A stretch of 64,000 nt of DNA from Mycosarcoma maydis (taxonomy: Eukaryota; Basidiomycota; Ustilaginomycetes; Ustilaginales): the NCBI RefSeq assembly GCF_000328475.2, contig NC_026489.1, positions 1-64,000 on the forward strand, read 5' to 3'. The notes beneath the pieces were generated by a model. The model made no database searches. It was not told the origin of the DNA and saw nothing but the letters and a program-made list of their open reading frames with translations. Below are positions 9,796 through 35,453 of the stretch, piece by piece (within the stretch, counting starts at the first letter, position 1; every line of letters begins with the position of its first letter). Both the position numbers and the translations under genes were made by a program.

Positions 9796-12439
9796 CTATG
9801 CGCAAAGCATGGCGCCCCTCAAGGCAGGGAACATCTTGAGTAAAAATGCATCCGGATCTGGCCAGTGTTGGTTGGTCAAGGTGCTTCCACATTTGTCCAT
9901 CTGAGTGTCCGAGTACGATCCCGCCTCGATCCTACGAACCTCTTGCTCCAACAATGGAATGAGGTGGGAGAATGGCTGTGAACAAGAGTGCTGATCGATC
10001 CTGATATCTCCTGCTGCATTGATTTCGGCCAATTCTGGTGCAGAAACAGGTCGACCAGAGGGTTCGAGGTAGCGCTCACCTCCTCGGCCGCACCGTTGCT
10101 CCTGAAGATCATGCTGGTCCTTGGGCAAAGCTTGTGCGTGGAGCCCCTTGACACAGGCTCGTGTCAACACCGCCTCGAGCGATTGACGTCGAATCTTCTT
10201 GAAAGTAACGCTGCGCGCCCAGCCTAGAATATGCTCAGCCTTGTCGTCCATGAGATAAGCGTGAGTCTGGATTTCATCCCCGCTTTTTGCGTCAGCAGAG
10301 ACGTACAACCGAAGGCTCGTGTATGCACCTAGCCTGCTTCTTGGGACTAGCAGTACCTCGCCTACTTTTGCTCCGATAAACGCCTCGTCATCGTTCACCA
10401 AGTCAGACAAGCTGAGCAGGAGGCCTCCAGCGTGCAGCATCACGTCGTGAAGGATCACATCTGTGGTCGCAGAGCTGAGCATATTTCCAACATTGGCGTT
10501 GCAGTGGAGTGACGTCGGATGTTGGAGAACCGCACACGCCTGTAGTTCGCGTAGATCCACAGTGAAAGATTGAATCGTTTGAAAATTCAGGCAGTACTGT
10601 ACCCGCTTGCTAAACAGATCGTAAGCTTGGCGTCCGTCCAGGCAAATGATCGAAGCATTGTAGCCAGCTCGTTGCCTCTGTTGCAGATCACGGAAGAGTC
10701 TGGGCACAGCCGTGGCCTGCTTGTCTGACTCTATGCGAGCTTGACTATCAGCGTCTTCCAGGCCTGCAATGTGGCCCAGTACATAGGCGTCTTTGACGCG
10801 GAGCCGCATGTCGTTCGTCTGCGGCATGCACAATTGTTGGATTGCAAATGCCGTGAACCGCTCCTCTGGGTCGTCTGGAGTTGCTTCGATCGCCACTTGT
10901 AGGCGTGTTCTGGTCAAGTCGACTTGGGTGTCACCGGCGGAGTCGGCATCTGGTAGAACCAAAGGTGCTCTAAAGGTGAGCTCCTTGAGCAGAAAGCTTC
11001 GTTCTCCCTTGTCTTGGGCAAGAGCCATCAAGCCTTGTACTGCCAGTTCTCCATGAAGCGATGCAGAGAAAACCGAATGCCCAACCACCTTGTGGCCCGA
11101 TACTGTCTCCTGGAACAACGAAAGCGGTCTGGTGATCAGGCTCGCAACAGTATCACTGCGAGGCGTCGAGCTCAAATCGGGCTCGATCCAGGCTGAGCAA
11201 CCGGTGATAGGCTTCTGCTCTGTACTTTTGCCGTCGCTAATCTGAGGCGATAGCGCCGGTGAATGAAGACTATCGTCAAAGAGACAGCTTCCTCGAGATG
11301 CCTCAGAAGAGGACACAGCATCATTGCCACAGATGGCAGCCAGTCTTGCGCTTGGTGGGGGAGGAGAAATCTCGCTAACATGTGTAAGGAATGCCTCCCA
11401 AGATACGTGACCTCCAGAAGTCCAGATGGCTCCGAGACATTGCAGCAAGGTGGACCCGTCATCTGCATTCTTGCGCATCGCGGGTAAAGTCTGCAGCTTT
11501 ATTTGGCGATTGGTCGCCACAGCCTTGATCATGGGTAGACAGATGGGACTTGGGCCCACCTCAATCCAATCGGTGATGCCTCCCATGGGTCACAGCTTGA
11601 TCGATAGCAGTGGCGAAACGGACGGGCGAGCGCACATGCTCAGAGAGGTAGCTTGCATTGAACACGTCACGCTCACCGGGTTGAACCACACGACCGAGCA
11701 CGTTGGACGTAATCGCAATCTTTGGTGGTGAAAAGTGTACAAGCTCAGCTGCGCGAAGCATTCGCTCGCAAGCAGGCGAAACATGGCTCGAGTGGAACCC
11801 GAAAGGCACTTGCAGCAGCTTGGCTTTCAAGCCCGAGTCCTTGGCATGCTTGTACAAGCTCGTCAGATCCAGCTTGGTGCCAGAGAGCACGAGGTCGGTT
11901 GGACCGTTGTAGCATGCAATCGTTGCGTGCGATCCTGCGTGCGAGATCAAGTCGAGCGCCTGTTGCTCCGAAGCTGCAAGAGCAAGCATCTGCGAGTGGC
12001 TTCCAAGGCAAAATCGACGAAATAGCACAGACCTTCTTGCAACCAGATAGATGGCGTCCTCGAGGCGAAACACACCTGCAATGTAGGCGGCTGCATAGAA
12101 ACCAAGGCTATGGCCTGTCACCAGAGCGGGTCGCACCGACATGGACATGAGCAGCTCGGCCAACGAGACTTCGATAGAAAAGATAGCCAGTTGCGTAGTC
12201 TGATCCTGGTCGTCAAAGCTTGTGGGCGAATCCCCCTGTCTATCGCTTGGGCCAAAAGGGAGAGGAAGCCGGGGAAACCTTGAGCCACAGAAATGCGGAA
12301 TCNNNNNNNNNNNNNNNNNNNNNNNNNNNNNNNNNNNNNNNNNNNNNNNNNNNNNNNNNNNNNNNNNNNNNNNNNNNNNNNNNNNNNNNNNNNNNNNNNN
12401 NNAATTCGTTAGCCTACCCACCGCCACTCCGCTACTCAT
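9796..12439 (-). pseudogene. PKS-A: MAT-PT half of a polyketide synthase, with frameshift and gap
   Basis: Visible parts, in gene order: a likely N-terminus (ATG at 12439, MSSGVAVGRLTN) running into the gap; most of a malonyl-acyltransferase domain with active-site Ser in GHSLGFYAA and His in HSSHV; then a product-template domain with His (GHKVVGHSV) and Asp (LHDVMLHAGG). It stops at 9796 with no acyl-carrier or thioesterase domain. Between MAT and PT the frame is broken at a C3 run (11582-11584, plus strand): dropping one base joins AVTHG to GITDWIEVGPSP, a normal MAT-linker sequence, and there is no room for an intron. The ketosynthase, if present, lies in the gap. In the PT, the usual Pro and Tyr after the catalytic His are replaced, so this PT may be structural. 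It matches one half of the U. maydis Pks3/Pks4 pair. Whether the break is real or an assembly error is open. Confidence 0.8.
12303..12402. other. Assembly gap (100 N)
   Basis: Exactly 100 Ns, the usual placeholder for a gap of unknown length. It falls in the 5' half of PKS-A, where the ketosynthase and the start of the MAT domain would be. Any reading frame spanning it is arbitrary. Confidence 0.98.
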
Positions 12440-12542
12440 AGACACGGTCTTTCATGCAGCAGATTCGATCGGTGATTCAATTCGCAAACATGCTTCCAAT
12501 CCGAACAGCGTGCACGTTTCGAGTTGTTGTACATGCGTAAAG

Positions 12543-13468: not shown

Positions 13469-14631
13469 TGGGGAAAACTCAGCTTTCTCGCTCTCGCTTG
13501 CTCGCTCGCTCGTTGACTTGCAGTGTAAAGCACTTTTGTGCACCCAAAACTGCAGCACAGACCCAGGATCGCCTCGGGAAGCAAACTTATGACTGTCTTG
13601 TTTATACTAGCGCCCCTACTTGTGGGTCTGTTGGTTAACATGCGCGAAATGTACCAGTTCTGTGTCGTGTTGTACCCTGGCGGTCAATTCTTCTATCAAC
13701 GACTTCTACAAGTTGTCACACTGTGCACACTGCTGTTGGCATCCGTTAAACACGCCGAACGAAGCTTTGCTGTGTATGTCGCACCCTTGCTGGTAGCTAA
13801 CATTACACGTCGGATTGAAGCTCCCACGTGCTCCATTGCAGCGGGTTGATTTGCTGAACGAGACATAGTTACTGAAAACTGGGTTGATGATAAGTATAGT
13901 CAGTATAACAGGCTGGGCCTCCTTGGGTGTGTGGGCAATAGCAGCTACGCCCTTGTTCGCAAACACACGAGCAAAACGAATCGCGTTGCATCAACAAGTT
14001 ACGTCGGGAGGCGAGCTATGCTCTCGCAGACGCCCTCGCCCTATCGCACGAGACGCAATCGTGAGTCGGACTTGGGTTGGAATCGTGAATGGAATCGGGT
14101 TCACCGCCGTGACGTGGGGCGTGGGGTAAAAAAACAACACGGACGTGGCAAAGGTGGTTCGTGCGGGATTTCGGCTGAATTTTGGCTGAGCCGCGTCGGG
14201 TCGACCCGACCGACATTCGTGATTCACGATTCGTGATTCAGTTGAGTATACAATCACGAATGCTCGGCCAAGATGCTTATAGCCGAGTCACGAGTCTCGG
14301 TGAATATCAACCAAACCGGAGATCCAATTCACAATCACGAATCACGAATCACGAATCACGAGTCACGAATGGTGATCTGCAAGCACTTATCACCGAAAGG
14401 TACACGGGCCACGCCTCACACAGAGCCAGTCACGTGTGAAGAATCATCACGGGGTTTTTCAGCCTTAACTTAGCTATTCTCAACTCGTTCATGGTCGTGA
14501 TTCTTACTGCATCCCACCACCCTCCATCATCGTCGACGACTTGGCCATGACCAAGGTAGGCTACTGCGAGCTCACTCAGCGCCGGGCCGCATAGAGTACG
14601 ATCTAATGCCGCAGTGCTCTTGTACTTTGCT
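13469..14631. promoter_or_regulatory. Upstream region of mtf1 with repeats
   Basis: It holds a GGGGTAAAAAAA element at 14123-14134 and two clusters of ATTCGTGAT-type repeats (14215-14240 and 14326-14370). A short hydrophobic open frame near 13588-13849 has no support. It probably includes the 5' control region of mtf1. Confidence 0.45.
14326..14370. repeat. ATCACGAAT short repeat cluster
   Basis: Five near-perfect copies of a 9-base unit (ATCACGAAT) in direct tandem with small variations. The same unit, in both orientations, recurs in other intergenic regions of the window. Confidence 0.85.
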
Positions 14632-17600
14632 ATGTCTTGCCCACAGGATCGCACCGAACCATTGATGGCCAGCTCGCACAGCTTGTCGACGATCGCTGGA
14701 ACCAAACGCAAAGCGCAAGATATAGCGCGCGATCACGTCGTCCAATCTACATCCGCTTGGTCCAATACACGATCCCATCACGCCGACGATTGGCCTTCAC
14801 AGCGCTACTGTGCCTCGCCCACTGGTTCTGTTGAACTTGGCGCGCCTGTAACGTCACGCCCCAGTCTCGTGCTGGCGCAACATAGCCAAGATGACGAACC
14901 GCGACACACCCACCAGGATGATACCGTTGCGGCCGGAGTCAATCACTCTGCCAACATCTCGCCAACCGCGAGTGCTTCAGCGAAATCCCCAGCCAGGCGT
15001 TGTCGTTCTACTTTGAGCTGCACAGAGTGCCGGAAATGCAAGATCAAATGCGATCGCAATGTTCCGCGATGCTCCAGCTGTGTCCGTCGCGGCGTGCCGT
15101 ACTTGTGTCGATGGGGCGACGCACGTGATGATTTGCACGAAATGCAGCACCCACACTCGCCCATGGCGGTCGCCTCTCACTCTCGATCCAGCAAACCTGC
15201 TTCTCCACATCCCAATCCCAACGCCCATGTCTCGACGCCTAATCACGACGCTCCGGTTGAACACGCGCACACCGTCACCAGCTCAGATTCGATCAGCAGT
15301 CGCAATAGTTTGCATGCGCGCGTTAAACGTATCGAAGCTAGCCTCGCCTCGGACGCAGCTGTAAGGCCTCAGTCTGGCGCGTCATTACCACGGTCTAGCA
15401 GTTTAGATAGTCGCACGCGTGGTCTAGCGCTGCTTCCCAAGTCGTCGGTGCTGCGCTCCCTTGTTGACTTCTACTTTGTCCACGTTGAGCCGGGCATCGA
15501 TGTTCTCCCTTCGCAATCGTCGTTTCTTCGTCAGATTCAGCCGCTCATCACGCGCTCGCAGCATGTCAAGGCAGCGCTCGGCCTCTCCGACACCAATATG
15601 TTGGCTACTATCAAGGCTCTGCCCGCCAAGCCAGAAAGCCATCCTGCCATCGAGAAAGTCGACCAGTCAGGCGCAACTGACGAGACGGGCATCACCGCCA
15701 CCCCCACCACCACCACCACCACCACCACCACCGTCGCTTTGTCCGGCGCGTCTAGTATTGCCGACGATGCTACTCGCAGCTCAAACGTGCAAAACGACCA
15801 TCTGTGGCAAGAAATCGACCTGATCGCCTTGTTGCTCGTCCTTCTACAGGGCGCCTTTGAGCATCTCACCATCAAAGAGCTTCAGCGTTACGGGCTTGAC
15901 GTTGAGAATCAGGCCGAACTTGATCGTGCCTCTCAAGTGTATTGCGATGCCGCGCTCGACCTTGTGCGTTTGGACTCGCGATTAGAAACGCCTACGCTCA
16001 CCTTTCTCCAAGTCGTTGTAAGCATGCGCCATTACTACCTTCATCGCGGTCGACACCGCACCTACGCCACATTCAACACCATGGCGATTCGACTTGCAAT
16101 CCAACTCGGCCTTCACCGTCTCGGCAGCCTCGGGCAGGATCTTGCCAACACGGAACTGCTCGAGCAAGCCAACACAGCACCGACATTGCCAGCCGCATCA
16201 TCGTCCACTTCGACGCAGCATGCATCCAACCTGTGGGGGCTCTTCCTTCCATCCACGCAGCGCAGACGTTGGCTCGATGCGTCGTACGCCAAGTTTGCTC
16301 CTCACGATCTTGTGTTGCGTGAACTAGGTCGTAAGGTATGGAACGTCCTCGTCTGCATGGACTGGTTCCAAGCCTCTCATTACGACGGCTACTACTCGGT
16401 ACATCCGGGTTCCTTCACTACAGCTCATCCAATCAATCTTTCCCAGAAACACATCGAGTCTGCTCTCATGTCTGGCACGCTGCCTCGACCTTTTCCGCAA
16501 GATCATCCGACCGAGTCGTCATTCCTTCCAATCCTCAGCTCGATCGCCCAATGCTCGCTCGAAATGGCTGATGCAGCCAACAAGGGTAGGTCTAGCTATG
16601 CCGATCTTTGCGTCATCGAAGCTCAGTTGCGCACCATTCTCGATCAACTCCCGCGCTTCTATCGCCTGGATGGTCACTGCGAGAATCTGGGCGAGGTGCA
16701 AGCATTCCACCGACAAGTACCACGTCTCACTTTTCAAAGGCTCTTGATCAACGAGACGATCCACCATCGCATCCTCAAGATCCATCGGCTCTATCTTTTG
16801 GTTGGGCTTCAATCTGAAGCTTTTCAACCGAGCGCCAAGGCTTGCATTTCTAGCTCGTTGCGCCTTGTCGAACTGGTAGACATGGCAGATGCTCGATCCT
16901 GGCCTGGGCTACGCTATTGGCACCTCAAGCTGCATCTCGCCGACGCGCTTTCCAACCTTGCGGTGGTACTCATTCATCGAGCTGGCCAGCCAGAGACGGA
17001 CGAGACTCGTCACTATCGCTCGTGTCTGAATCGCGGTGTTCAGATTCTGCGTAGTGGCATCATGACTGCTTATCTTAGCGCCAGCATTCAGGTGATCCGC
17101 GCCTTGGCCAGAGCCGAGCTCTCACAACGGCGTCGCAACAACGATCATGTGTCAAGCCGCCATCCGCTCGTCACTGCCGCCGACGATGATGACCAAGCAG
17201 CATGCAACAATCGCGAAGACTTGGACCAAGTGAGTGCACGCATTGGCTTGATGGCCGACACGCACAAAGAGGAGGATGGCGACAGCAGCTCGATTACAAG
17301 AGCATTGATTGCCGATGCCACTACCACTCGTTCCTCCACCACGTTTGTATCAGGAGCTATCGAAGCTTCGGGTGGTCACACACAGCCCGCGACGACTGCT
17401 TCGGCTTTGTCATCAGACGAGGTGTCGCATTATTCGTCTCCGGTGCAAATTGATCTCGACAACTTTGTGTCGAGGGTGATGCCCGGAAACACATTTGGAT
17501 TCTGGCAGCCGACTTCGGCCGCCGATACGTCGCTGGCGGAGCATACAATGGCTGGGCCTGCAGAAATAATGGCAGAGGATAGTGGTGCCAACTGGTCGAA

Positions 17601-17703
17601 TCTCACATACCCAGTTGATTGGACTGAGGTTTTGGCTCAAATCACCTCATCCACGGCTCAAAGACTCTCGGACCCAGTTGGCCGCCAACGCCCTTTTCAC
17701 TAG
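14632..17703 (+). CDS. mtf1: Zn2Cys6 transcription factor, Mtf1-like cluster activator
   Basis: Single-exon gene of 1023 residues. The ATG at 14632 is the first in-frame ATG (the frame opens at a GTG 18 bases earlier); an alternative ATG is at 14665. The Zn2Cys6 binuclear cluster lies at about residues 130-157: C-x2-C-x6-C, then C-x2-C-x6-C, ending at GVPYLC, with basic residues following the second Cys. The middle part (about 400-520) has the fungal-specific regulatory (fungal_trans) character, with ALLLVLLQGAF and AIRLAIQLGLHR. A Thr run encoded by ACC repeats (about 15703-15733) precedes it. It is transcribed away from PKS-A. In U. maydis, forced expression of mtf1 switches on the melanin cluster; the same role is inferred from position and type. 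Confidence 0.88.
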   Translation: MSCPQDRTEPLMASSHSLSTIAGTKRKAQDIARDHVVQSTSAWSNTRSHHADDWPSQRYCASPTGSVELGAPVTSRPSLVLAQHSQDDEPRHTHQDDTVAAGVNHSANISPTASASAKSPARRCRSTLSCTECRKCKIKCDRNVPRCSSCVRRGVPYLCRWGDARDDLHEMQHPHSPMAVASHSRSSKPASPHPNPNAHVSTPNHDAPVEHAHTVTSSDSISSRNSLHARVKRIEASLASDAAVRPQSGASLPRSSSLDSRTRGLALLPKSSVLRSLVDFYFVHVEPGIDVLPSQSSFLRQIQPLITRSQHVKAALGLSDTNMLATIKALPAKPESHPAIEKVDQSGATDETGITATPTTTTTTTTTVALSGASSIADDATRSSNVQNDHLWQEIDLIALLLVLLQGAFEHLTIKELQRYGLDVENQAELDRASQVYCDAALDLVRLDSRLETPTLTFLQVVVSMRHYYLHRGRHRTYATFNTMAIRLAIQLGLHRLGSLGQDLANTELLEQANTAPTLPAASSSTSTQHASNLWGLFLPSTQRRRWLDASYAKFAPHDLVLRELGRKVWNVLVCMDWFQASHYDGYYSVHPGSFTTAHPINLSQKHIESALMSGTLPRPFPQDHPTESSFLPILSSIAQCSLEMADAANKGRSSYADLCVIEAQLRTILDQLPRFYRLDGHCENLGEVQAFHRQVPRLTFQRLLINETIHHRILKIHRLYLLVGLQSEAFQPSAKACISSSLRLVELVDMADARSWPGLRYWHLKLHLADALSNLAVVLIHRAGQPETDETRHYRSCLNRGVQILRSGIMTAYLSASIQVIRALARAELSQRRRNNDHVSSRHPLVTAADDDDQAACNNREDLDQVSARIGLMADTHKEEDGDSSSITRALIADATTTRSSTTFVSGAIEASGGHTQPATTASALSSDEVSHYSSPVQIDLDNFVSRVMPGNTFGFWQPTSAADTSLAEHTMAGPAEIMAEDSGANWSNLTYPVDWTEVLAQITSSTAQRLSDPVGRQRPFH
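15703..15733 (+). repeat. ACC trinucleotide repeat inside mtf1
   Basis: About nine or ten ACC units coding for a Thr run between the DNA-binding and regulatory domains. Length variation between strains is likely. Confidence 0.85.
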
Positions 17704-20347: not shown

Positions 20348-22213
20348 ATGGCTGGAAAACGTAATCGCTGGACACGAAATGAAGATGAAATTCTTAAGAA
20401 GGCGGTTCTTTCCAGCGCTAAGCCAAGACCAAGCTGGGCCATGATCGCCAAGCATATACCCGGTAGATCCAGCAAAGACTGTCGCAAGCGTTGGGAGCAC
20501 GGCCTCAATCAAAATCTATCGCGAGGCCCCTGGTCAGGATCCGAGGATGCACGCCTCAAAGCAGCCGTCGCAGAACATGGACTACACTGGGCACTTGTCG
20601 CTACAAAGGTAGGCAAACGTACTAGCGATCAATGCGCCAAGAGATGGTGTGACGTTCTCGATCCCTCGCTCAAAAAATCTGAATGGACCGCTGACGAGGA
20701 TTCAGCGCTGCTTGGCCTCTACCAGCAGCTCGGAACGGCTTGGGCCAAACTCGCTACGCATATCCCAGGCCGAAGCGCCCTTAGCTGCCGCAATAGGGCT
20801 TGCAAGATCCTGGTCCAACGCGGCGAGCCAAGACCAGGTTCGGTCGAGGCAGAAGAGCTTCGTCTCACAATGCTGGCGCAACAGCAGCCCAATAGCAACC
20901 CATCGAGTCCTTTATTGTCTTGTTCGTCACCTATGTCCGCGTCGGGTCTATCGGCAGCCGCAATAACAAGCCCTCCCCAGCTGAATTCTCAACCACAATT
21001 CATTCAGATGAGCGACAAGGATCTGAATTCCGTCTTGCCTTGGCATCGATCGCCTAGCGAAAGTGTCGGCCACATTTATAGCGAGCCCGGCGGCTGGCTA
21101 CCAGGCTCGCCAGGCGATGCAGTCCTCGACAGTCTTCTCGTTTCTACTCCTGGCGCCTGCGATGACTTCTCCCTGGGCATCGGCATGGCTCAAGGCGGCA
21201 GTCTTCTCCAGACCTTGTTCGAACCAGCAGCAACGACAAGTGCATCAGAGCTGCAGTTCGATCTTGCTCCGCTATTCGAATCTGCATCTGTCAGCAGAGA
21301 CCAAGCCACACCTGTCCCCGGATACATAGAGCCAGTCGACGGACGATCGGATCTAGACATGATCGATCTGACAAGCTATGCAGCGCCTTCAATGTCGAGC
21401 TGGACAGCCAACGAGAGTTTGACTAGCTCTTCTAGCTCCACAAGTCCTTGCACGCGTTGGTCAACCCCAGCCGAAGACTCTGGTCGCCTCACCTCAGCAA
21501 AGGAATGGCTGTCCTCTGGTGAGGCTAAGCCGAGTCCTGACAACGAGACCAGCTACACAAGTAGGCTCAACCACATGCATCCTCCCTTGCAAGCGTCGAG
21601 AGCTACGCAAGTATCAGCTAGGCGCATGTCGTTGCCGGCGCTCGGACAGATCATGACCATGGCTGGCGACCCGGCACGCGTGCTACAAATGCTGGCTACC
21701 GAATTCGATGCTGACCGCGTCTGCTGTAGAACAAGATCAACGAGCACCAATGCCGACGTGTCGAGCAAGACGTGCTCTGGCAGCGACGACGCGTGTCTCA
21801 CGTCTCGGAACGTGGACTCGAGCTCAAGCTCGAGCGCCACCACTTGGCAGCGCTCCTACACAGCTTCGGAGGCGTCGACACTACCAGTGTGGATGCACAC
21901 ACTGCTAGATACCGCCTCGCACTCGACAAACACTCTAGAGACCGACCAAGTCATCAGCGCCCACGCGTGCCAGACGATGCAACATCCGTTGCAGCTGTCG
22001 TCTAAGCCAGATATAGCCATGTTGCGCTTGCCCAATTTTTCTGGTGACCAAGTATGGCTCGACAACAGCCACAACCAGCACGGCAGCTCGAGACACGTTG
22101 TTGAGCTGTCCGGCTTGGTACGAAACATGGCAGATCTCATGGCAAACATGGCCACCTTAGCGCGTGCTATTTCGAGCGGGGGCACAGCCAGCGCCACTAA
22201 CACCGTGGTCTGA
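20348..22213 (+). CDS. mtf2: R1R2R3 Myb-type transcription factor, Mtf2-like
   Basis: Single-exon gene of 621 residues. Three tandem Myb (SANT) repeats occupy about residues 5-160, each with spaced Trp residues: RWTRNEDEILKKAV to CRKRWEHGL, GPWSGSEDARLKAAV to CAKRWCDVL, and EWTADEDSALLGLY to CRNRACKIL. The rest is Ser/Thr/Gln-rich and probably an activation region. It follows mtf1 on the same strand. A second, Myb-type regulator in the U. maydis melanin cluster is called mtf2; identity is inferred from domain and position. Confidence 0.87.
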   Translation: MAGKRNRWTRNEDEILKKAVLSSAKPRPSWAMIAKHIPGRSSKDCRKRWEHGLNQNLSRGPWSGSEDARLKAAVAEHGLHWALVATKVGKRTSDQCAKRWCDVLDPSLKKSEWTADEDSALLGLYQQLGTAWAKLATHIPGRSALSCRNRACKILVQRGEPRPGSVEAEELRLTMLAQQQPNSNPSSPLLSCSSPMSASGLSAAAITSPPQLNSQPQFIQMSDKDLNSVLPWHRSPSESVGHIYSEPGGWLPGSPGDAVLDSLLVSTPGACDDFSLGIGMAQGGSLLQTLFEPAATTSASELQFDLAPLFESASVSRDQATPVPGYIEPVDGRSDLDMIDLTSYAAPSMSSWTANESLTSSSSSTSPCTRWSTPAEDSGRLTSAKEWLSSGEAKPSPDNETSYTSRLNHMHPPLQASRATQVSARRMSLPALGQIMTMAGDPARVLQMLATEFDADRVCCRTRSTSTNADVSSKTCSGSDDACLTSRNVDSSSSSSATTWQRSYTASEASTLPVWMHTLLDTASHSTNTLETDQVISAHACQTMQHPLQLSSKPDIAMLRLPNFSGDQVWLDNSHNQHGSSRHVVELSGLVRNMADLMANMATLARAISSGGTASATNTVV

Positions 22214-23339: not shown

Positions 23340-25553
23340 CTACACGAAAAGAGCCGGGTGACGAGCTGAGTCGTCCAAGGAGCGCTTGGTCCGCGCATCT
23401 GTCTGCCATCCTTGGTGAGCAACATGTGCGGTCGGTCGCTTCTGGAATCGATCGGGGATAGCCGCGATCTCGTCTTCCCCCTCTAGGAAGACAACTCCCA
23501 TTCCTGCCATGTGGTGTGAAGTGACTGCAGCCAGATGCGCAATAGCGTCGCAATACAGAACCACCAACGTTGAGTGTGCAACACGACGAGTCAGCGCATA
23601 TCCGGATCCAAGAAAGAAAAACGCATCGATGCATCGATAGACTCACTGTGACAGTGCAGCATCCAAGCACCAGGATTGTCAGCTACAAAGCGCAATACCA
23701 ACCATCCCGCCGTAGGCAGCAAAAACGTATCGCGCTTGGGCGGGTTATCGAGGTTGAGCTGCACACCATGCGCCATAGCTTCGGCGGCACTTTGGAATTG
23801 CCAATCGTCATACTCGTTGGATCCCAATACCCAGAACTTGTGACCGTGCAGATGGATCGGATGCGGTGGTTCGGCGGGCGCTGGAAACAGAGCGTTCTGT
23901 GCATTTTGCAGAATCACATCCACCACGTCTCCCTTGGCGATGCGGATCAGCCAATCTGGATCGCGCGTACCAGTGTACTGGGACGAGTTGGAAAACAAGA
24001 CGGGCAAATTCAACTCTTCTACCATTCGAAGCGGGCGCGATGCGATCGAAAACACGGTTGGCTCGCTCTGGTTAGCGTGGAAGATCAATGTCCTGTCGAC
24101 CTTGGACGGTGGCGCGTCGGCGATGAATGGCATCGACTTGATGGGATCGTATGTGCTGGTACCCTCAGCAGGTGTAGCGTTGTACTTGACGTGCGATCGG
24201 CTCATGTCGCGCCATGGATCCGCGACCGAGACGCTGGTCTGCTCCGTCGTTCGTCGCTTCTGGTGCGGCGCATCTTGGTATCGCAAAATTCCAACGCCTC
24301 CCATCACCTGGGCGAATCCAGCGCTATTCGCTCGAATGTAGTAGTCGCCTCCGTCCGGCTTGTCTGTCCTGACCATGACTCCGTACCTCTGACCGATGCT
24401 GACGGGCAATGCCTGCACTTTTTCCGGAACAATGTAGTCTCCATCCGCTGAAATCACCCACAGATCGTGAGCGTCGATGCTGAAAACCCACGTCCACTCG
24501 CCTCCCACATTGGCAAGGTTGATCAAGGTCCACTCTGAATGTGTCGGAACGATCTCGAGCTGGCCAGTGCTGTTGCTGCATCCCATGGGCGACGTGATGG
24601 TGTGAGCACTGTAAATGCCCGAGCCTGGGATCACAAGGCATCCACGCGCATCCAACTTGCTCTCGAAGAAGGGCATAGCGTCGAACCGACCGCCCGCAGC
24701 TTGATTCAGCGTCTCGGCGCTAGCACAATAGATGCTACCTTTGCCGTTGAACAGCACACTGTCGACGCACGTGGTTGGACGACCGCTCGCAAAGAACATT
24801 GCCAGCGCCTCGTCCTCTTGCACGTGTTTCCAATCGTACAATGCCAAGTTTCGAGGCGAGTCTTCGGCTTGTTGCATAGCGGCCACTTGGTCTCCACTTG
24901 GATCGATCAGCTGGAACGGTCGTGGACGCTGCGCCGATGGTCGGATGTACAGCAGCCCTTTCACCCCATCATCCAGGTAGCCGCGCAGATGAGCGTGGTA
25001 CCAGTGTAGACCTGTTTGATTCGTCGGTGTAAACTTGTACGTGTAGTCGCCCAACGGAGGAATCGCCCATTGCGTTACTCCCGGAACACCGTCCATTTCC
25101 GGACTACCGATCTGCAAGATTCCGTGCCAGTGTATCGTGATATCCACTGGCAGGCTGTTGTGGATTGAAATCTCGACATCGTCACCTGTAGCCGCCTCAG
25201 ACCGACGCGTTAGCTCTCGTTACCTAAACCCATCAGGTCGCCGTTATCCAGGGCTGGCTACGGCTACTCACCTTGGTCCAATTCCAGCACTGGGCCAGGC
25301 GTATGTCCATTGATGCCAAACGTCATTCGATAATGACCATCTTCTCGAAAGCATGCGAGTAAGACCAACAAGCAACGTGAATCAGCCAAGGATTGTTTGA
25401 AAAGTGTTTCTTCGCCAGCTGTCAATTGTACACACCTGGTGCCTCGTATAGCGGTGAAATGGTCCAGTCATGCTGTACCGTCTTTGCAAACACCATCCAA
25501 GTGCTAGAAAGCACTAAAAGCGCTGTGAAAAGTGGTGATATGTAACGCTGCAT
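23340..25553 (-). CDS. aox1: Secreted multicopper oxidase (laccase / ascorbate-oxidase type), Aox1-like
   Basis: Four exons: 25553-25436, about 25343-25272, 25185-23647 and 23524-23340, giving about 637 residues. The N-terminus from ATG 25553 (MQRYISPLFTALLVL...) is a signal peptide. All four copper motifs are present: HWHG, HWYHAH, HPIHLHGHKFW, and, only after splicing the last intron (donor GTGAGT, acceptor CTGCAG), HCHITSHHMAGMG. Reading through that intron would lose the last copper ligand and stop early. The acceptor of intron 1 is uncertain by three bases (25344 or 25341). It oxidises phenolic substrates with oxygen outside the cell and could couple cluster products into pigment. In U. 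maydis the gene is called aox1; assignment rests on family and gene order. Confidence 0.88.
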
Positions 25554-26410: not shown

Positions 26411-28388
26411 TCAATGATGATAATGAGAAGAGCGAATGAGATGCGCAGCGCGTTCAGCAACCGCATAGACAGCGGACTGAATCTGCGTGGTGGGGATTTC
26501 GGGGAACACGCTAGCATCGACAATGCGCAGTCCATCAACGTTGAACACGTTGAGGTTTGTGTCGACCACGCCCTGCTCGCGTGTGCTTGCCATGCGTGCA
26601 GTACCGCAAATGTGGTGGATGGTAGCCAAGGATTGATAAATGGCCTCATCAATTTGGTCGTCGGTCTGGATGTCGAGACCAGGCGAATTTTCATCCACGA
26701 GAATGCTGGCTAGTGAGTCGGAAAGCATGGCTGCACGCAGCCTCTTGAAGCCCCATCGCAAGATGTTGAGATCCGCAGTGGACGACAGATAGTTTGGGTT
26801 CACCAGAGGAAGCTCTTCGGGACAGCTTGAATTGAGTCGAACGCTTCCTCGTGACTCGGGCGTGGTTAACACAGGGATCACAGTCACAAGCTGCCTCATC
26901 GACGAGCAGTATAAAGATCAAGAAAAGTTTGGTGAGCTGGGTGAGCTGATCGCCATCGTCTTTGCTGCCACAACGCTCTGCTCGCACTTACATTTTCGGT
27001 ATTGGATGGGTTAGCAAATAGCGCAGTGTTAAACAGGTACTGCAAGTGGTTTTGGTCTTTCGGCAATTGCTGGTGGTACGTAGCATTCCAGGCTTCGAGC
27101 AAGTGGTCGGGCACTCGCTCGGCAGCTTGTGAGCCGCCCAGATCCGAAGTGAGCTCGCCTTTGTTGCGCCTGTAGTCATTCTGCAGCTCTTCAAGGTAGG
27201 TTTCGTTCAGCCACTGAGCAGTGGTGGTGATGTTATCTCTAACCCGGTAGGTAAATACGGGAAAGACGTGATCAATTGCATGCGATCCTACGGCGGGCGA
27301 GTTCAAGATAGTTTTGATTCCGTGCTTTGCCAGGTGCCGAGCTGGTCCAATACCAGATAGCATGAGCAATTTCGGTGTCTGTACCGCCCCGGCTGCCAAG
27401 ATTACTTCTCGCCGAGCTTTCAACAAGACCTTGTTCTCTGGTTTCAAACAATGTTTGAGAAACGAATGTCAATACTTCACTCTTTGGCTATCACAACAGG
27501 TTTGCAAGACTCACTGGAAACAAGGTCGGTTACCCAGACACCGTCGGCGATTCGCATTTTGGAGCGAATGCGAATCTTGTCGGCCCGTGTTCGTGTAAGG
27601 ATACGGACATTCTTGCGGCTCTCGAGGAAGGGCATGTGGGCTGTTGCAGCCGAAGATCTGGTGCTGTTGCTAGGATCAATCGTCATTGTATGATAGGCGA
27701 CACCGATTGAGCTTCCTGCATTGAAATCGATCAGCGGAAATGAAGGTCCACCGTTTGTGCTATTCTGGAAAGCGGCGACAAAGTAGCTTGCAAATCTCTC
27801 TTGATTGTGCGGATACGAGACTTGTACGGGCCCCGTCGTGTTGACGTAAACGCTTGCATCATATGGAGAAACAGCAACGTCGGTGTCTAGCGGGTTGAAG
27901 TGCACCGACTTATCAAAGTATCTGACCATGTTCGACCAGGACCAAGCCGTGTCATTGAGCTGAGAAGCCCACTGATCGAAGACGGATGGAGCACCACGCG
28001 AGTAGGCCATGAAGTTGACACTGCTTCCACCACCCAGGCCAAAACCTTGCTGGTATACGATGCTGCGCTGCTTCGCATGTTGCTGGGGAGTGGTGGTAAG
28101 GTTCCAATCGTATTGGCCTCCGCTCAGTCTGGTCACGAAACCAGGGACGCTGACGTTGGTAGAGCCCCTGGGATCATCGCCAGCTTCAATCACCGTCACA
28201 GTGATGCTTGGATCCTCTGAAAGTCGCGAGGCGACTACCAGTCCAGAAATCCCGCCTCCGACGATAATGTAATCCGACGTCAGGTGCTTCACCGCTACTG
28301 CGTGCACACTGGCAATCGTGGCAAGTCCCACGAGCAACAGCATGCGCCAAAGATGCTTGTAAGAAGTCGCAGAGCTGCTTGAAGCCAT
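26411..28388 (-). CDS. vbs1: Secreted GMC flavoprotein, versicolorin B synthase-like
   Basis: Three exons: 28388-27515, 27437-26992 and 26890-26411, giving 599 residues. Donors are GTGAGT and GTAAGT; acceptors are CCAG and GCAG. The N-terminus has a hydrophobic signal sequence (LLLVGLATIASVHAVAV). Family hallmarks are the FAD-binding YIIVGGGISGLVVASRL, GLGGGSSVNFM, EVILAAGAVQTPKLL with SGIGP, the HHICGTARM segment, and the C-terminal RIVDASVFPEIPTTQIQ with YAVAE. In the last block the usual His near the active site is not in its normal place, as in non-redox GMC cyclases such as versicolorin B synthase (inference). In U. maydis vbs1 is needed for black pigment. It shares a divergent promoter region with a small secreted protein gene. 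Confidence 0.87.
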
Positions 28389-30155: not shown

Positions 30156-33100
30156 CTATGGCCCGGCCAAGAAAGAACACACCTTCTCCAGCTCGGTCGA
30201 AAGACTGGCTACATTGCGCTTTGCAAAAGGCGTAAAGTGGTTGCCTGCAATCTCGCAGCACATGGTCAATTGTCCGATGTGATCCCATCCCAACGTAGCA
30301 TAGTTCTGCTGCTCGCCACCATAGCAGTTGCGTTTGAGAAGCCAGCCGTGTCTTTCAAAGTCGCTCTCGCTGAGGTTGCAAGTCCAGTAGGATTCTCGAC
30401 TTCGAAGCAGGCACAAGTCCAAGGTGGCAGTACCGTTGGTCGATTTGTTCGACTCTAGGACGGATCCGAGCGCCGTATTCGCGTCAAGCTTAGCGCGCTT
30501 GGCATAGCCGACCATGGCAGCACCAGAACGAAGGAAGGACGCTTTGATGAGCTGGCGCGTCAGCCCAGAAAGACGATCGACCTTGTCCGAGTGACTGCGA
30601 TCGTCGACTCCATTTGGCGTGGAGCGCGTCTGAGGCATGAGCGAAGCAATGATCGTAGCGTCCAGGGGTGTGTGATCCAAAGGACATGGCGAATCGATGG
30701 CCACGGTGCCTAGAACACGCTCCGAGCCGGATCGGTCCTTGAGCTGGTAGCCAACTTCCCATGCCAGTACACCTCCGAACGACCAACCGCCCATGATCAA
30801 GCCACCGTCTCGATAGACCGAATCAATCCTATCCGCCAGCATTGAGGCATGCTCGACAATGTCCAAGGAGCCAGCCGACGGATCCCACATGCGCTCATGG
30901 TGCAGGATCCAGATGTCCCGAGTCTGATCCGCAGGAAGTGAGCATGTTGTAGTTGCGATCCCGGAGCCATCGGCGCAGAGGAACAGCGGTGCTGCTCCTG
31001 AACTGTTGCCAACACGGATACGTACCGGATTCTGCTCCATGCGAAGCGCTTTGCGCAGGAACTGTGCGTCGGTGCTCGAGATGCTGTGCCAGCTGTCTGC
31101 TGCGGTCGAGATCGGCACAGTAGGCTTGTGGTTCTGGTCGAGTGTGATCGCCTTCTTCCCGCCTTCGACTACAGGGCGCAGCGTGCTGGTCTGAGCGTGC
31201 GCAGTGGCCTTCACTGAAATATCAGCGTCTCTTATCGACTCTTGAGCTGCTTTCTCTGGCTTTGGCGGGCAAACAGCGCTCAAGTACTCCTGGAAAGTGA
31301 CGTCGTTCGAAATTAAGTCAACGTCGAGCTGTGCTGTCCCAAATTCTGTACGAAGGGCCTGTACGAGCTCAAGAATGCCAAGAGAGTCCAATCCTAGTTC
31401 TTCGAGGGTTGCGCCGTGCTGATCGGCCAGCCCAGCTGTTGACGTGCCAAGGATCCTGGCCAAAACTTCGGCAGCTTGAACTTCTGCAGCTTTGCTATTT
31501 TGAGTAACAACTTCCTTCTGAGGAATGCCAGGATACTCCATAGCTGCCGCTGAGCTGCTGTCAAATGCCTCGACCAGCGGTGTCGGTGATGCGCTTTGCA
31601 CAACGTCAGTGTCTCGATCCTTTGCTCCAAGGCCATCGTCTGAGCTGGCGAGTTGGGCGAGATCTGCAATGGTCAATCCGGAGTCGATTCCGATCTCTTC
31701 GAATCTTGCGGCAAACTGCTTACCAACGCTCTTGTTGAGGTACGAGATGAGTTCGATGAAGAGCAGCGAATCTACACCGAGCTCTTCGAGAGTGCTTTTG
31801 GGATCTATGCTATTCTCGTTGATGCCCGTCGCGAGTGCAATTGTGCTGATGATCTTTGGGAGCATGTTTGTAGGCCGGCCAGATACCTTCTTCGCATGTG
31901 GACTTGCGATCGTGTCTGAAGTGTTGGTGTCTGAACTGTTGCGTTCCGCTGCGCTTCGGCACACCGCCTCTGCAGGCATGGGAGCGACATGTGCAGCACT
32001 GATGCAGGTTGATCCGTTCAACACTGAAAAGAAAGACCGCTTGGAGAGCTTCTTGAAACGGATCTTATCGACCGAGACGATGACTCTGCCGTTCAGCGAA
32101 AGAGCCTGAGCACTCGCCAAAAACGATGACGTCCTAGCATCCCACTGTAGCTCTACTGCGATCTGCTGGACCGAGTCATGCTTGCTGGCCATGTCAAGAT
32201 ATCGCACCTTTCCAACACTTTGAGCGATAAAGACGACATTGCTCTGATACTGCGGTGATGTGTGCGCCATGTAGCCGCATGCGTGGAGAAGCGTGTCTTG
32301 CAGGATCGGACTGAGAACATACTCTCCAGACCACATCTGCTTGTGGATCCGCTCTTTCGCCTGATCGGTGAGAGTTGCTTCGCCATTCGTAGCATCCTTT
32401 GTCGTCCGAAGACTTGCAATTGTCTGGTACAAGTCGGAATAATCTACCACTCTGTCAGCAAATGTAGCGTATAGATCCTTCTGTGCAGTGGAAAGCACCG
32501 GTGGAGATGGTGTTACGATTCTCGCGACATCGATTGTCGAGTCGGCGCCCATCGGTTTCACAGCAAGAGACGCCGACGCGTGGCTGGTAACTTGATTCTT
32601 GCCGCTGCACGATAAACAAGAGGACAAGATCGTCACTGAGTATACCATCCCTCGATCGTTTTCGAGCTCAGTGATTCGTTTCAGCTGGCAGATGATCGAG
32701 CCTGGATTCGCTTCGTCGTACCGGAGAGGCGCCGAATAATGGACGTCGGCCAGCTCCAAGATGTTCGGATTGGAGTGTGCTGTTTCGCTACAGGCATTCA
32801 GGTGCTTCTCGGCGGATGCCAGCATCATCTCGTGGTAGACAGAAGCCGGGCACATCCCAACTCCTGCGACCTTGTGACCCAGTATCTCGTCCTTGACTTC
32901 ACGGACAGGCAAGACATAAGCTGAAATACCTTGTTCGCGCACAGAGTGTATCTGACAAGCCTCGACTTGATAGCGCTTTTTTGCGGTTTCCGTAGATGGG
33001 CTAGCTTGACCGTGGGCACTTGCTGCTGCTGCGACCAACGTCTCGGCGGAAGCACCATTCGTCTGGATTTGCTGCTTCTGTAATGCAGCCTGTGCCACCT

Positions 33101-35453
33101 TGGCCTGGTAGGACACCCAGTAGCGGTCCTTTGCAAACGAATGGAGCGGCAAATCGGATAGAGGTGAGACTTGCTGACCTGCGATAGCTAGGAGCTGTTC
33201 GAAATCGATTTGGGCTCCGTAAGTATACAGCGCTGCCAGAATTTCCCACATGGACATTGATTCTAGTTGGTCGAAAGCCTGGTCAAGTGCTTCTTGCGTG
33301 TCGAGCTTTGCGATCAGACCGACTTTGTTGTCTGTGAGAATGACGATACTCTTTGGTCTCGAAATCTGCAAGTCGGTGTCTATTTCGGCGGTTTTCAGCT
33401 TGTAGAGCGGTGCTAGAGCAAGGTCGGAGACGCTAGCCTCGATGTTCATGCTTTGCTCCAGCGCGTCCTGCAATGGGATAGCACCTGTGTACACTTTCCA
33501 TGCGAGTTGGCTCTCATGTGTGGGGGCTGCGATGCGCAGGTTGTCAACACTCCATGCGCTCCAAGTCTTGAGCGTGGCGATATTTCTTACGAGTGAGAGA
33601 GCTTTCTTCTCACGCCTTGAGGACGAGCAGAGCAGATCAGAGATGTACTGAGTCTGGCTAGTGGGAAGAGCCTGAACCGTTTCATCCCAAAATCGTTTGA
33701 AGAGCTTATCTGACCAAAGCCTCTGGCGGGCAAAGCTGGAAATGTCCAGGTGTGTGGAGAGGAGACCGACCACGGGTGCTGACGCTTTACCGATTCGCTC
33801 GAGCTTTTCGCCCGCATCGAACCGATCCAAGGCTGAAGCAAGCTTGCCTTCGATCATGTCCAAATTGGCGCCGGGAACCGAGAAAGCCAATCGGTAGTGC
33901 GGGTGGTGAATGCGCCTCGCGCAAGTCGAGTAGCATAGCCTGGATCCCAGTTCATCGTTGCAAGCATTTCTAGAGGCACGGATCCAGACAAGATAGTCGC
34001 AAATCAGCTTGTGCATACCATGGGACGTGCGGGCAGACAGGCAGAACAGCGAATCTGCATGCGCATTTTCTCTGGCTCTAAGAGTCGAAGACGAAGGCGG
34101 GACAGTAACGTGCTCCATCAGGATTGCGCTAGCATTGGAGCCAGCAGCTCCAAAAGAGTTGAGTAGCGCGACTCGTGGGGCTCCGTTTGGAGGTCGAGGC
34201 CATTCGGTCGCACTTGTAGGGATTTGCACCTTGTGAGTTTCGACCAGTGCTCGCAGTTCCGGGTTCAAAGTCTTGAGACTAACCTGGGGAGGAATCTGAA
34301 AGTGCTTGAGCATACCCAGAAGCTTGCAAAGTCCAGCAAAGCCCGCTGCCGCTTCAGCGTGACCGACGTTTGCCTTGACACTGCCGACCATCAACGGCAC
34401 GCGACGTCCCGCAGTGACGCCCGAGGCAGCTGGCTGGTTGCTCGTAGAACCGTATAAGCTGGTCACACTGGCCATCTCGCAACGATCGCCAGCTTTGGTT
34501 CCTGTTCCGTGCATCTCGACGTAGCCGACCTGATCCGGGGAGATGCGCGTATCCTGGTGGAGCTTTTTAAAGAGTGCGTGCTGGGTTTCAACGTGCGGAT
34601 GTGTGATAGATACGGCAAGTCCAGATTGGTTGAGAGCTGTTCCACAAATGACTGCCTCGATGCAGTCTTGATCATGGACAGCGTCTTGGAGCTTCTTGAC
34701 AACGAAAGCGGCAACGCCTTCCGCCCTACCGTAGCCATCTGCTGATGCATCGTAGGTCTTGCACTTTCCGTCTGGGCTGAGAAAGTGGCCCCTCCAAAGT
34801 CCCAGCATGGTGAGCGGACTTGAAATAATGTTGACTCCGGCCACCAGAGCAGCTCGACAGTCGCCCGTCTGAATAGCGCGACAAGCCATGTGAAGAGCTA
34901 CGAGCGACGAAGAGCACGCAGTATCCACCACGATGCTGGGACCCGACCAGCCGAAATGGTGCGAAATCCGACCAGCCATAAAGGCGCGCAACGTGGCAGG
35001 CGAATAGAAGACGTCAACCTCTTGACACTCGAGATTGGCAATGTAATCGTCGGTAGCTGCAGCCACATATACACCAAAAGTCTCTGGCGCATTGCTGACT
35101 AGATGAGACGTGTTGCAGTAGCCCGAAGCTTCAACAGCTTCATGCGCCACTTCTAGTAGCTTGCGTTGCTGGGGGTCCATTACGCGAGCTTCACGCTTGC
35201 TCATGCCGAAAAACGCAGCATCGAACGTATCTGCATCGTCTATCACGGCTGCATTGCGTACACCCATGCGTCGATAATCCCGGCCGCGCTCTTGGGACTC
35301 GGTGTAGAACTGTTTGATGTCAAAGCACCGTTCCGGGATCTCGTCGATCGCTTGAGCTCCCGCCATCAAGAGGCTCCAAAATGCCGACGGAGAATCAGCT
35401 CCTCCGGGAAAGCGGCAAGAGTGACCGACGATAGCAAAACTTTGACTTGACAT
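30156..35453 (-). CDS. PKS-B: non-reducing polyketide synthase half, KS-(dead AT)-PT-ACP-ACP-TE
   Basis: Single exon, 1765 residues, ATG at 35453, with a TATAAAA-like box about 75 bases upstream. Order: ketosynthase starting at the N-terminus with no starter-unit acyltransferase domain (Cys in DTACSSS, about residue 180; His in MHGTGT and in VGHAEAA); a shortened acyltransferase-like region (about 530-790) with no GxSxG serine motif but keeping the linker that ends DRYW; product template (His in LGHKVAGVGMCPASVY, Asp in LQDTLLHACG); two carrier domains (LGVDSLLF and LGLDSLGI); thioesterase (GGWSFGG). It cannot load malonyl units itself and needs a partner in trans; PKS-A has the missing MAT. 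In U. maydis, Pks3 and Pks4 are reported to act together to give orsellinic acid. Which of the two names applies here cannot be decided from memory. Confidence 0.93.
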   Translation of the reverse strand: MSSQSFAIVGHSCRFPGGADSPSAFWSLLMAGAQAIDEIPERCFDIKQFYTESQERGRDYRRMGVRNAAVIDDADTFDAAFFGMSKREARVMDPQQRKLLEVAHEAVEASGYCNTSHLVSNAPETFGVYVAAATDDYIANLECQEVDVFYSPATLRAFMAGRISHHFGWSGPSIVVDTACSSSLVALHMACRAIQTGDCRAALVAGVNIISSPLTMLGLWRGHFLSPDGKCKTYDASADGYGRAEGVAAFVVKKLQDAVHDQDCIEAVICGTALNQSGLAVSITHPHVETQHALFKKLHQDTRISPDQVGYVEMHGTGTKAGDRCEMASVTSLYGSTSNQPAASGVTAGRRVPLMVGSVKANVGHAEAAAGFAGLCKLLGMLKHFQIPPQVSLKTLNPELRALVETHKVQIPTSATEWPRPPNGAPRVALLNSFGAAGSNASAILMEHVTVPPSSSTLRARENAHADSLFCLSARTSHGMHKLICDYLVWIRASRNACNDELGSRLCYSTCARRIHHPHYRLAFSVPGANLDMIEGKLASALDRFDAGEKLERIGKASAPVVGLLSTHLDISSFARQRLWSDKLFKRFWDETVQALPTSQTQYISDLLCSSSRREKKALSLVRNIATLKTWSAWSVDNLRIAAPTHESQLAWKVYTGAIPLQDALEQSMNIEASVSDLALAPLYKLKTAEIDTDLQISRPKSIVILTDNKVGLIAKLDTQEALDQAFDQLESMSMWEILAALYTYGAQIDFEQLLAIAGQQVSPLSDLPLHSFAKDRYWVSYQAKVAQAALQKQQIQTNGASAETLVAAAASAHGQASPSTETAKKRYQVEACQIHSVREQGISAYVLPVREVKDEILGHKVAGVGMCPASVYHEMMLASAEKHLNACSETAHSNPNILELADVHYSAPLRYDEANPGSIICQLKRITELENDRGMVYSVTILSSCLSCSGKNQVTSHASASLAVKPMGADSTIDVARIVTPSPPVLSTAQKDLYATFADRVVDYSDLYQTIASLRTTKDATNGEATLTDQAKERIHKQMWSGEYVLSPILQDTLLHACGYMAHTSPQYQSNVVFIAQSVGKVRYLDMASKHDSVQQIAVELQWDARTSSFLASAQALSLNGRVIVSVDKIRFKKLSKRSFFSVLNGSTCISAAHVAPMPAEAVCRSAAERNSSDTNTSDTIASPHAKKVSGRPTNMLPKIISTIALATGINENSIDPKSTLEELGVDSLLFIELISYLNKSVGKQFAARFEEIGIDSGLTIADLAQLASSDDGLGAKDRDTDVVQSASPTPLVEAFDSSSAAAMEYPGIPQKEVVTQNSKAAEVQAAEVLARILGTSTAGLADQHGATLEELGLDSLGILELVQALRTEFGTAQLDVDLISNDVTFQEYLSAVCPPKPEKAAQESIRDADISVKATAHAQTSTLRPVVEGGKKAITLDQNHKPTVPISTAADSWHSISSTDAQFLRKALRMEQNPVRIRVGNSSGAAPLFLCADGSGIATTTCSLPADQTRDIWILHHERMWDPSAGSLDIVEHASMLADRIDSVYRDGGLIMGGWSFGGVLAWEVGYQLKDRSGSERVLGTVAIDSPCPLDHTPLDATIIASLMPQTRSTPNGVDDRSHSDKVDRLSGLTRQLIKASFLRSGAAMVGYAKRAKLDANTALGSVLESNKSTNGTATLDLCLLRSRESYWTCNLSESDFERHGWLLKRNCYGGEQQNYATLGWDHIGQLTMCCEIAGNHFTPFAKRNVASLSTELEKVCSFLAGP

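What the first reader, a model, noticed from the sequence alone, without database searches (positions are those of the whole stretch)
9796..35453. Two polyketide synthase halves with complementary domains
PKS-B (30156-35453) has active-site motifs for KS, PT, two carrier domains and a TE, but its acyltransferase region is shortened and lacks the GxSxG motif. PKS-A (9796-12439) keeps an intact MAT motif pair but stops after PT, with no carrier domain or TE. Neither can act alone; together they make one full iterative non-reducing synthase. This fits, and gives a domain-level reason for, the reported Pks3/Pks4 heterodimer that forms orsellinic acid in U. maydis. Trans-acting acyltransferases are unusual in fungal type I synthases.
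Basis: partly seen in the sequence, partly recalled or inferred. Interest (0 to 1): 0.75.

Follow-up and report, generated by a model that had tools for sequence, protein, structure and literature searches.

The report
Two half polyketide synthases, complementary domains
Two neighbouring fungal pigment genes each encode only part of a polyketide-making enzyme, and the parts that one has lost the other has kept, so the fungus probably builds one working machine from two proteins; a second gene pair in the same genome shows the same kind of split.

Summary
PKS-B (30156-35453, -) is KS-[decayed AT]-PT-ACP-ACP-TE without SAT. PKS-A keeps a malonyl transferase and a PT and ends without carrier or TE. 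The open question (a KS behind the 100-N gap?) is answered: no. Its 5' part lies at the edge of another contig of the same assembly (C20:2-1537) and encodes a SAT. An intact 99%-identical copy (P0121, 1439 aa) reads SAT-linker-MAT-PT, with no KS. So the pair partitions one set: SAT+MAT+PT against KS+PT+ACP+ACP+TE. Relatives in other data (P0002, P0122) show the same losses. The frame breaks in PKS-A look like sequence error at contig ends.

The locus matches the reported Pks3/Pks4 cluster, whose joint action ('heterodimer') is in print; whether the domain reason is too I could not check. Added here: the corrected architecture, weak decay remnants, a conserved C-terminal tail, and a second, differently partitioned NR-PKS pair on C23 (presumably pks1/pks2). 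As PKS-A has no KS, I favour a PKS-B homodimer served by PKS-A over a strict heterodimer. No biochemistry was tested.

The parts
30156..35453 (-). PKS-B (Pks3-type): KS - linker - decayed AT - PT - ACP - ACP - TE, no SAT
34275..35435 (-). KS domain, Cys and both His present
   Evidence: 515.5 bits to a KS profile of 36 NR-PKSs
33219..33818 (-). place of the acyltransferase: decayed, no GxSxG, no Pfam AT
   Evidence: 19% identity to P0002 here against 69% in the KS; hhalign score 29.1 against a shuffled maximum of 20.2, 0 of 100 as high, though hhalign's own probability is only 14.5%
32016..32957 (-). PT domain of PKS-B, catalytic His and Asp present
31290..31859 (-). two acyl carrier domains, both serines present
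30177..31034 (-). thioesterase domain, Ser, Asp and His present
9796..12302 (-). PKS-A (Pks4-type), 3' part up to the gap; frame changes inside; 5' SAT part lies at C20:2-1537 (-)
11588..12202 (-). malonyl-transferase domain with GHSLG (12101-12115) and GFHS
10162..11118 (-). PT domain of PKS-A, His and Asp motifs present, below the TIGR04532 cut-off
9799..9870 (-). C-terminal tail: 21 of 24 residues identical between P0121 and P0122 although the spacer before it shares only 20 of 87 aligned; possible docking peptide (inference)
12303..12402 (.). assembly gap of 100 N that cuts PKS-A
4127..7551 (-). Pks5: adenylation - carrier - reductase (carboxylate reductase); domains found in 4127-6997, no Pfam match in the 7000-7551 ORF, which is added by position only
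   Evidence: paper passages
14614..17703 (+). Zn2Cys6 regulator
20348..22213 (+). Myb-type regulator (Mtf1 by type)
   Evidence: PMC10532341 passages
23591..25147 (-). multicopper oxidase
26411..28388 (-). GMC oxidoreductase (probably Vbs1)
   Evidence: 27477-28388 and 26896-27447 match; the ORF 26411-26899 was not scanned
36344..37747 (+). O-methyltransferase
38884..41100 (-). FAD monooxygenase, phenol hydroxylase type
43021..44871 (+). cytochrome P450

Best explanation
PKS-A and PKS-B are the two halves of one split, iterative, non-reducing polyketide synthase. PKS-B holds the condensing KS, both carrier domains, a PT and the releasing TE; it has no SAT and its AT has decayed. PKS-A holds the SAT and a malonyl transferase with its catalytic residues plus a second PT; it has no KS, carriers or TE. 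PKS-A loads malonyl (and perhaps acetyl) groups onto the carriers of PKS-B; the KS of PKS-B condenses them to a tetraketide, a PT folds it, and the TE releases orsellinic acid or the shorter lactone TAL; Pks5 then reduces the acid to the aldehyde. Shown by sequence: which domains and catalytic residues each protein has, and that relatives share the losses. In print (passages seen): Pks3 and Pks4 act together to give orsellinic acid and TAL. Inferred: loading across proteins, docking through the linker, PT or conserved C-terminal tail of PKS-A, and a core made of a PKS-B homodimer, because KS domains work as dimers (recalled knowledge) and PKS-A has none.
For: Domain scans: PKS-B has no AT; PKS-A, its intact copy P0121 included, has no KS, ACP or TE. 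Catalytic columns against 36 fungal NR-PKSs: AT Ser in 36 of 36 references and in P0121 and P0122, absent from PKS-B and P0002; KS Cys in 36 of 36, PKS-B and P0002, absent from P0121 and P0122. Constraint follows function: PKS-B against P0002, KS 69% identical but the AT place 19%; P0121 against P0122, MAT 74%, SAT 65%, and only 53 of the 342 residues of P0122's KS place have a partner in P0121. The genome-wide six-frame AT search gave 5 matches over cut-off: PKS-A, two in very large frames (3744 and 3759 aa, probably fatty acid synthases), the C23 PKS, and a 41.9-bit one on C3. Joint action of Pks3 and Pks4 is reported (PMC10098057 passages).
Against: No biochemistry or interaction data here. 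The original 2021 paper was not held (the DOI tried was a wrong recollection; the right paper was tried by PMC id). A strict heterodimer is not supported by the missing KS. The PTs of both proteins and of both relatives score below the curated PT cut-off. The PT tree does not place the PKS-A and PKS-B domains as sisters, so an origin by duplication of one gene is not shown. The decay remnants are weak: HMMER sees neither (PKS-B AT place -4.4, P0002 -0.2; P0122 KS place 6.1 bits against a shuffled maximum of 7.4); hhalign gives them probabilities of only 14.5% and 25.2%, and its margin over shuffles is thin for P0122 (33.7 against 31.9).
Confidence: 0.85

Rival explanations
1. Assembly artefact: the missing AT of PKS-B and the missing KS of PKS-A are losses of sequence, and both are really complete synthases.
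For: The window does have a gap and frame breaks in PKS-A, and the SAT part was assembled elsewhere.
Against: P0001 (28 member sequences, another source) agrees with PKS-B at 1724 of 1736 positions with no insertion. P0121 (159 member sequences) spans the gap without a KS. P0002 and P0122 from other sources have the same losses.
Confidence: 0.03
2. PKS-A is a dying pseudogene, and PKS-B takes malonyl units from another transferase such as that of fatty acid synthase or the mitochondrial one.
For: PKS-A is broken in this assembly. Other AT domains exist in the genome.
Against: P0121 is intact. MAT 74%, SAT 65% and the tail 21 of 24 are kept between P0121 and P0122. A review reports that Pks4 acts with Pks3. 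The MAT piece is only 95% like P0121 while the PT and SAT pieces are 99%, as expected of poor sequence at a contig end.
Confidence: 0.05
3. A variant of the best explanation, not exclusive with its core: a strict 1:1 heterodimer in which PKS-A takes the place of one PKS-B protomer, as reported in print, held by the PT and linker regions.
For: Reported as heterodimer. Both proteins keep a PT and the KS-AT linker region.
Against: PKS-A has no KS, so the KS of PKS-B would have no dimer partner. On C23 the partner keeps a KS-like domain without catalytic residues (272.7 bits), which suits a heterodimer better than PKS-A does.
Confidence: 0.3

Closest known systems
Ustilago maydis Pks3/Pks4 melanin cluster (Reyes-Fernandez et al. 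2021; paper not held, seen through passages of PMC10098057, PMC10532341 and PMC13208730)
   Same: Matching cluster content (regulators, oxidases, O-methyltransferase, P450, Pks5), two partial PKS genes, reported joint synthesis of orsellinic acid
   Different: None found: this is almost certainly that locus. The domain-level split and the C20 location of the SAT half are what I add; whether the paper has them is unknown to me
Basidiomycete orsellinic acid synthases (ArmB, HerA and kin; SAT, KS, AT, PT, ACP, TE in one chain; PMC10064546 passages)
   Same: Same domain kinds in total; HerA also has two carriers; product orsellinic acid
   Different: Here the set is divided over two proteins, and the PKS-A and PKS-B domains sit on long branches apart from the 13 basidiomycete references (phylum labels mine)
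SAT-domainless basidiomycete NR-PKSs (CoPKS, CrPKS; PMC10401856, abstract and passages)
   Same: A KS-bearing NR-PKS without SAT can be functional
   Different: In what I read those lack the SAT only; PKS-B has lost its AT as well
Bacterial trans-AT polyketide synthases (recalled)
   Same: Works like them: a condensing enzyme without AT is loaded by a transferase on another protein
   Different: The transferase here is a SAT-MAT-PT protein of NR-PKS type, not a stand-alone AT; the best solved-structure match of its MAT is norsolorinic acid synthase (115.7 bits), ahead of DisD (78.2; a trans-acting AT as I recall)

Membership tests
Fungal non-reducing PKS (as a pair) | SAT, KS, MAT, PT and ACP (TE) present | tested here: met
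   Together all are present with catalytic residues; neither protein alone has them all
Fungal non-reducing PKS (PKS-B alone) | functional AT in the chain | tested here: not met
   No Pfam AT, serine column lost, no GxSxG in the AT place
Fungal non-reducing PKS (PKS-A alone) | KS and ACP in the chain | tested here: not met
   P0121: no KS, ACP or TE by Pfam and by profiles
Fungal PT domain (TIGR04532) | curated score of 168 bits | tested here: not met
   PKS-B 94.9, PKS-A piece 85.9, P0121 79.8, P0122 86.7, P0002 113.1 bits, although catalytic His and Asp are kept; the C23 gene in L027 reaches 193.5
Pks3/Pks4 orsellinic acid system | cluster gene content | tested here: met
   against the gene list in PMC10532341 passages
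Pks3/Pks4 orsellinic acid system | location at the end of chromosome 12 | tested here: inconclusive
Pks3/Pks4 orsellinic acid system | both proteins needed for orsellinic acid; physical heterodimer | not testable with these tools
   reported in review passages only
Trans-AT polyketide synthase (bacterial family) | AT-less KS protein plus discrete AT of the trans-AT clade | tested here: inconclusive
   AT-less: yes. Best solved match of the MAT is a fungal NR-PKS, ahead of DisD; the AT tree held only fungal NR-PKS rows, so clade membership was not tested. Works like one, not filed as one

The most novel reading that the evidence does not exclude
Splitting of a non-reducing PKS into two obligate partners by reciprocal domain decay happened more than once in this lineage. 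Besides PKS-A/PKS-B, the two other NR-PKS genes of the same genome, on C23 (presumably pks1 and pks2 of spore melanin), are also complementary cripples with another partition. One is SAT-dead KS-no AT-no PT-ACP-ACP-TE, with the residues at all three KS catalytic positions replaced; the other is dead SAT-KS-MAT-PT-no ACP-TE. There the dead KS may act as a non-catalytic dimer partner, like the KS-beta (chain length factor) of bacterial type II synthases.
Probability: 0.55. Interest if true: 0.75.

Novelty: new variant of a known kind. Interest (0 to 1): 0.55.

Why it matters
Fungal NR-PKSs are usually treated as self-contained one-chain machines, and genes that lack domains are easily written off as dead. 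A pair that supplies loading and condensation from separate chains is a natural trans-loading fungal system, useful for asking how type I iterative synthases recognise carriers and partners. If the C23 pair works the same way, this one genome offers two differently partitioned cases. It would explain why one gene of a pair does not replace the other, and would warn against reading single incomplete PKS genes as pseudogenes.

Tried and rejected
Considered and rejected: that the gap hides a KS (P0121 spans it without one); that the neighbouring ORF 12546-13310 is part of PKS-A (no PKS domain by Pfam or profile); that PKS-A has a small intron at the frame change (P0121 is one open frame with the residues contiguous there). 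An acetyltransferase-like look of that neighbouring ORF was a passing guess of mine; Pfam gave no support. A shared promoter word CCGGGTAA was found after the fact; it is in 6 of 8 stretches (two of them share one site), and in random sets of eight stretches some 8-mer reached 6 in 14 of 200 sets, so I make no claim. Domain trees did not settle whether PKS-A and PKS-B arose from one duplicated gene: long branches, no sister relation of the PTs. The KS of PKS-B and P0002 fell among 8 ascomycete rows (97% SH-aLRT), not with the basidiomycetes, on a long branch; I did not follow this up. The AT place of the C23 gene in L026 showed no AT remnant (15.8, reached by 26 of 100 shuffles). A telomere repeat search gave 58 overlapping matches, all at one place on C4, and did not help. 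Literature searches; in the listings and passages that I saw none stated the domain-level split, but most listed papers were not opened and the original paper was not held. In one search, of 200 shuffles per protein only those that scored at all (55 to 111) entered the stated maxima. Rows dropped: the 36 reference NR-PKSs were chosen by hand from the fungal SAT-bearing hits among the 120 listed; others of that kind were left out.

Full report
What the window is. The genome (19.66 Mb, 27 contigs, no name given) and the gene content fit Ustilago maydis chromosome 12; that naming is inference. Between Pks5 and a P450 lie a Zn2Cys6 and a Myb regulator, a multicopper oxidase, a GMC oxidoreductase, an O-methyltransferase and an FAD monooxygenase. 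This matches the melanin cluster described in PMC10532341 and PMC10098057 (passages read). PKS-B is then Pks3, PKS-A Pks4, and 4127-7551 Pks5, an adenylation-carrier-reductase protein.

PKS-B. One open frame of 1765 aa. Pfam finds KS, two carriers, PT-type and TE domains, no AT and no SAT. Against 36 fungal NR-PKSs picked by hand from the 120 listed hits, the KS, PT, ACP and TE catalytic residues are in place, while the AT serine and histidine columns are lost. The AT place is also the least conserved part against the relative P0002 (40% identical overall): KS 69%, KS-AT linker 38%, AT place 19%, post-AT linker 42%, spacer 21%, PT 41%, carriers 35% and 32%, TE 46%. P0002 lacks the AT serine too and has no Pfam AT. 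HMMER does not see an AT in either protein (-4.4 and -0.2 bits). A profile-profile alignment of both finds a remnant over 111 columns that run across the old serine site: score 29.1, while 100 column-shuffled controls reached at most 20.2; hhalign's own probability is low, 14.5%.

PKS-A. The assembly cuts it at a 100-N gap (12303-12402) and breaks its frame twice. Searching with the PT piece brought two full-length relatives out of a collection of 5.77 billion proteins (2 hits among 7991 scored candidates). P0121 (1439 aa, 99% identical over the piece, 159 member sequences) is plainly the same protein, intact. P0122 (1679 aa, 49% over the piece, 58% overall) comes from a 51.7-kb contig of another source. 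Both carry SAT and AT and no KS, ACP or TE. P0121 residues 1-512 match C20:2-1537 of the same assembly, with one in-frame stop near the contig edge, and residues 614-1439 match C12:9799-12277, so about 100 residues are missing between the two contig edges. A KS, about 400 residues, does not fit. The SAT has its GxCxG cysteine and histidine; the MAT has serine and histidine; the PT has histidine and aspartate (P0121). Between P0121 and P0122 the SAT is 65%, MAT 74%, PT 53% identical; a C-terminal spacer falls to 23% (20 of 87 aligned) and is followed by a tail with 21 of 24 residues identical. I read the tail as a likely docking peptide; that is inference. In P0122 the KS place still holds about 340 residues. 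HMMER does not see a KS there (6.1 bits, shuffled maximum 7.4); profile alignment gives 33.7 against a shuffled maximum of 31.9, 0 of 100 as high, probability 25.2%, with the active-site cysteine gone. So P0122 may show a half-decayed KS that P0121 has deleted; the support is thin.

Rarity. A further search with the alignment of P0121 and P0122 gave 124 hits, 120 listed, among 7993 scored candidates; the two queries are the only ones listed with SAT and AT but no KS by precomputed Pfam. A 2026 survey (PMC13208730, section 3.6 and passages) reports no pks3, pks4 or pks5 homologues in 15 other Ustilaginaceae and suggests horizontal transfer. P0002 and P0122 show that relatives exist elsewhere. 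Their organisms are not named; amino-acid make-up differs (GARP/FYMINK 2.29 against 1.52), so they are probably from different species.

How it works. PKS-B has everything to condense, fold, carry and release, but nothing to load extender units; PKS-A has the loaders and nothing to load onto. The simplest mechanism is transfer from the SAT and MAT of PKS-A to the carriers of PKS-B. The other AT domains over cut-off in the genome are two in very large frames (probably fatty acid synthases), one in the C23 PKS and a weak one on C3. Mushroom NR-PKSs can dispense with SAT (PMC10401856, abstract), so the malonyl transferase is probably what makes PKS-A necessary. The word in the review is heterodimers. 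Since KS domains act as dimers (recalled knowledge) and PKS-A has none, I favour a PKS-B homodimer with PKS-A docked to it; this is not shown.

A second pair. The genome's other two NR-PKS genes, on C23, are complementary too. The frame in L026 (cut at its 5' end by my fetch) has SAT (69.7 bits to my profile, Cys and His kept; 60.1 bits to Pfam SAT), a KS-like domain (272.7 bits) with E, S and A at the Cys and the two His positions (a cysteine lies one position after the first), no AT beyond a 3.6-bit match inside the SAT, no PT (-2.6 bits), two carriers and a TE. The frames in L027 have a SAT-like stretch below cut-off (15.5 bits, cut-off 22.8; my own SAT profile gives -0.7), KS, MAT and PT with residues kept, no carrier, and a TE. 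PMC13208730 already suggests from a deletion phenotype that pks1 and pks2 may together form one complete system; I saw no residue-level argument in the section and passages that I read, and its figures and tables were not available. That these are pks1 and pks2 is presumed. I had no protein searches left to test conservation.

Assembly. C12:1-12302 and C20:1-12335 are both edge contigs closed by 100-N gaps. The intact gene shows that C20:1 and C12:12302 are neighbours in whatever strain P0121 comes from, and presumably here. Either the C20 piece belongs in the C12 gap or the C12 piece belongs on C20; I cannot decide. The MAT piece is 95% like P0121 while the PT and SAT pieces are 99%, which points to poor sequence at the contig end and would explain the frame breaks.

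Limits. No structure prediction was possible. The original paper was not held, so the domain-level split may already be in print. The trees do not show that PKS-A and PKS-B are sister copies. No interaction or activity was tested.

Noticed in passing
L026 (C23:164000-173000) and L027 (C23:179500-188500): The other two NR-PKS genes of the genome are also reciprocally defective, with another partition: SAT-dead KS-no AT-no PT-ACP-ACP-TE against dead SAT-KS-MAT-PT-TE without carrier.
   Followed up: partly
C20:2-1537 (L014) and window 12302: The 5' SAT half of PKS-A lies at the very edge of contig C20; C20:1-12335 and C12:1-12302 are both edge contigs bounded by 100-N gaps, so one of them is probably misplaced.
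   Followed up: partly
window 12420-12597: 89% identical to C20:3043-3224, about 1.5 kb upstream of the PKS-A start codon on C20; the match does not extend further.
   Followed up: no
window 8056, 28697, 35986, 41354; C20:1989: CCGGGTAA occurs upstream of pks5, the GMC oxidoreductase, pks3/omt1, the FAD monooxygenase and pks4, and nowhere else in the window, in C20:1-10000 or in 38 kb of other fetched DNA; found post hoc and statistically weak, a candidate site of the cluster regulator.
   Followed up: partly
window 9799-9870: Conserved C-terminal tail of PKS-A after a poorly conserved spacer, in the place where a carrier would be expected.
   Followed up: partly
P0002, P0122: Relatives of Pks3 and Pks4 in unnamed assemblies, contrary to the suggestion in PMC13208730 that the cluster is specific to U. 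maydis 521.
   Followed up: partly
window 34275-35435: The KS of PKS-B and P0002 falls among 8 ascomycete NR-PKSs (97% SH-aLRT), not with the 13 basidiomycete ones, on a long branch; relevant to the published suggestion of horizontal transfer.
   Followed up: no
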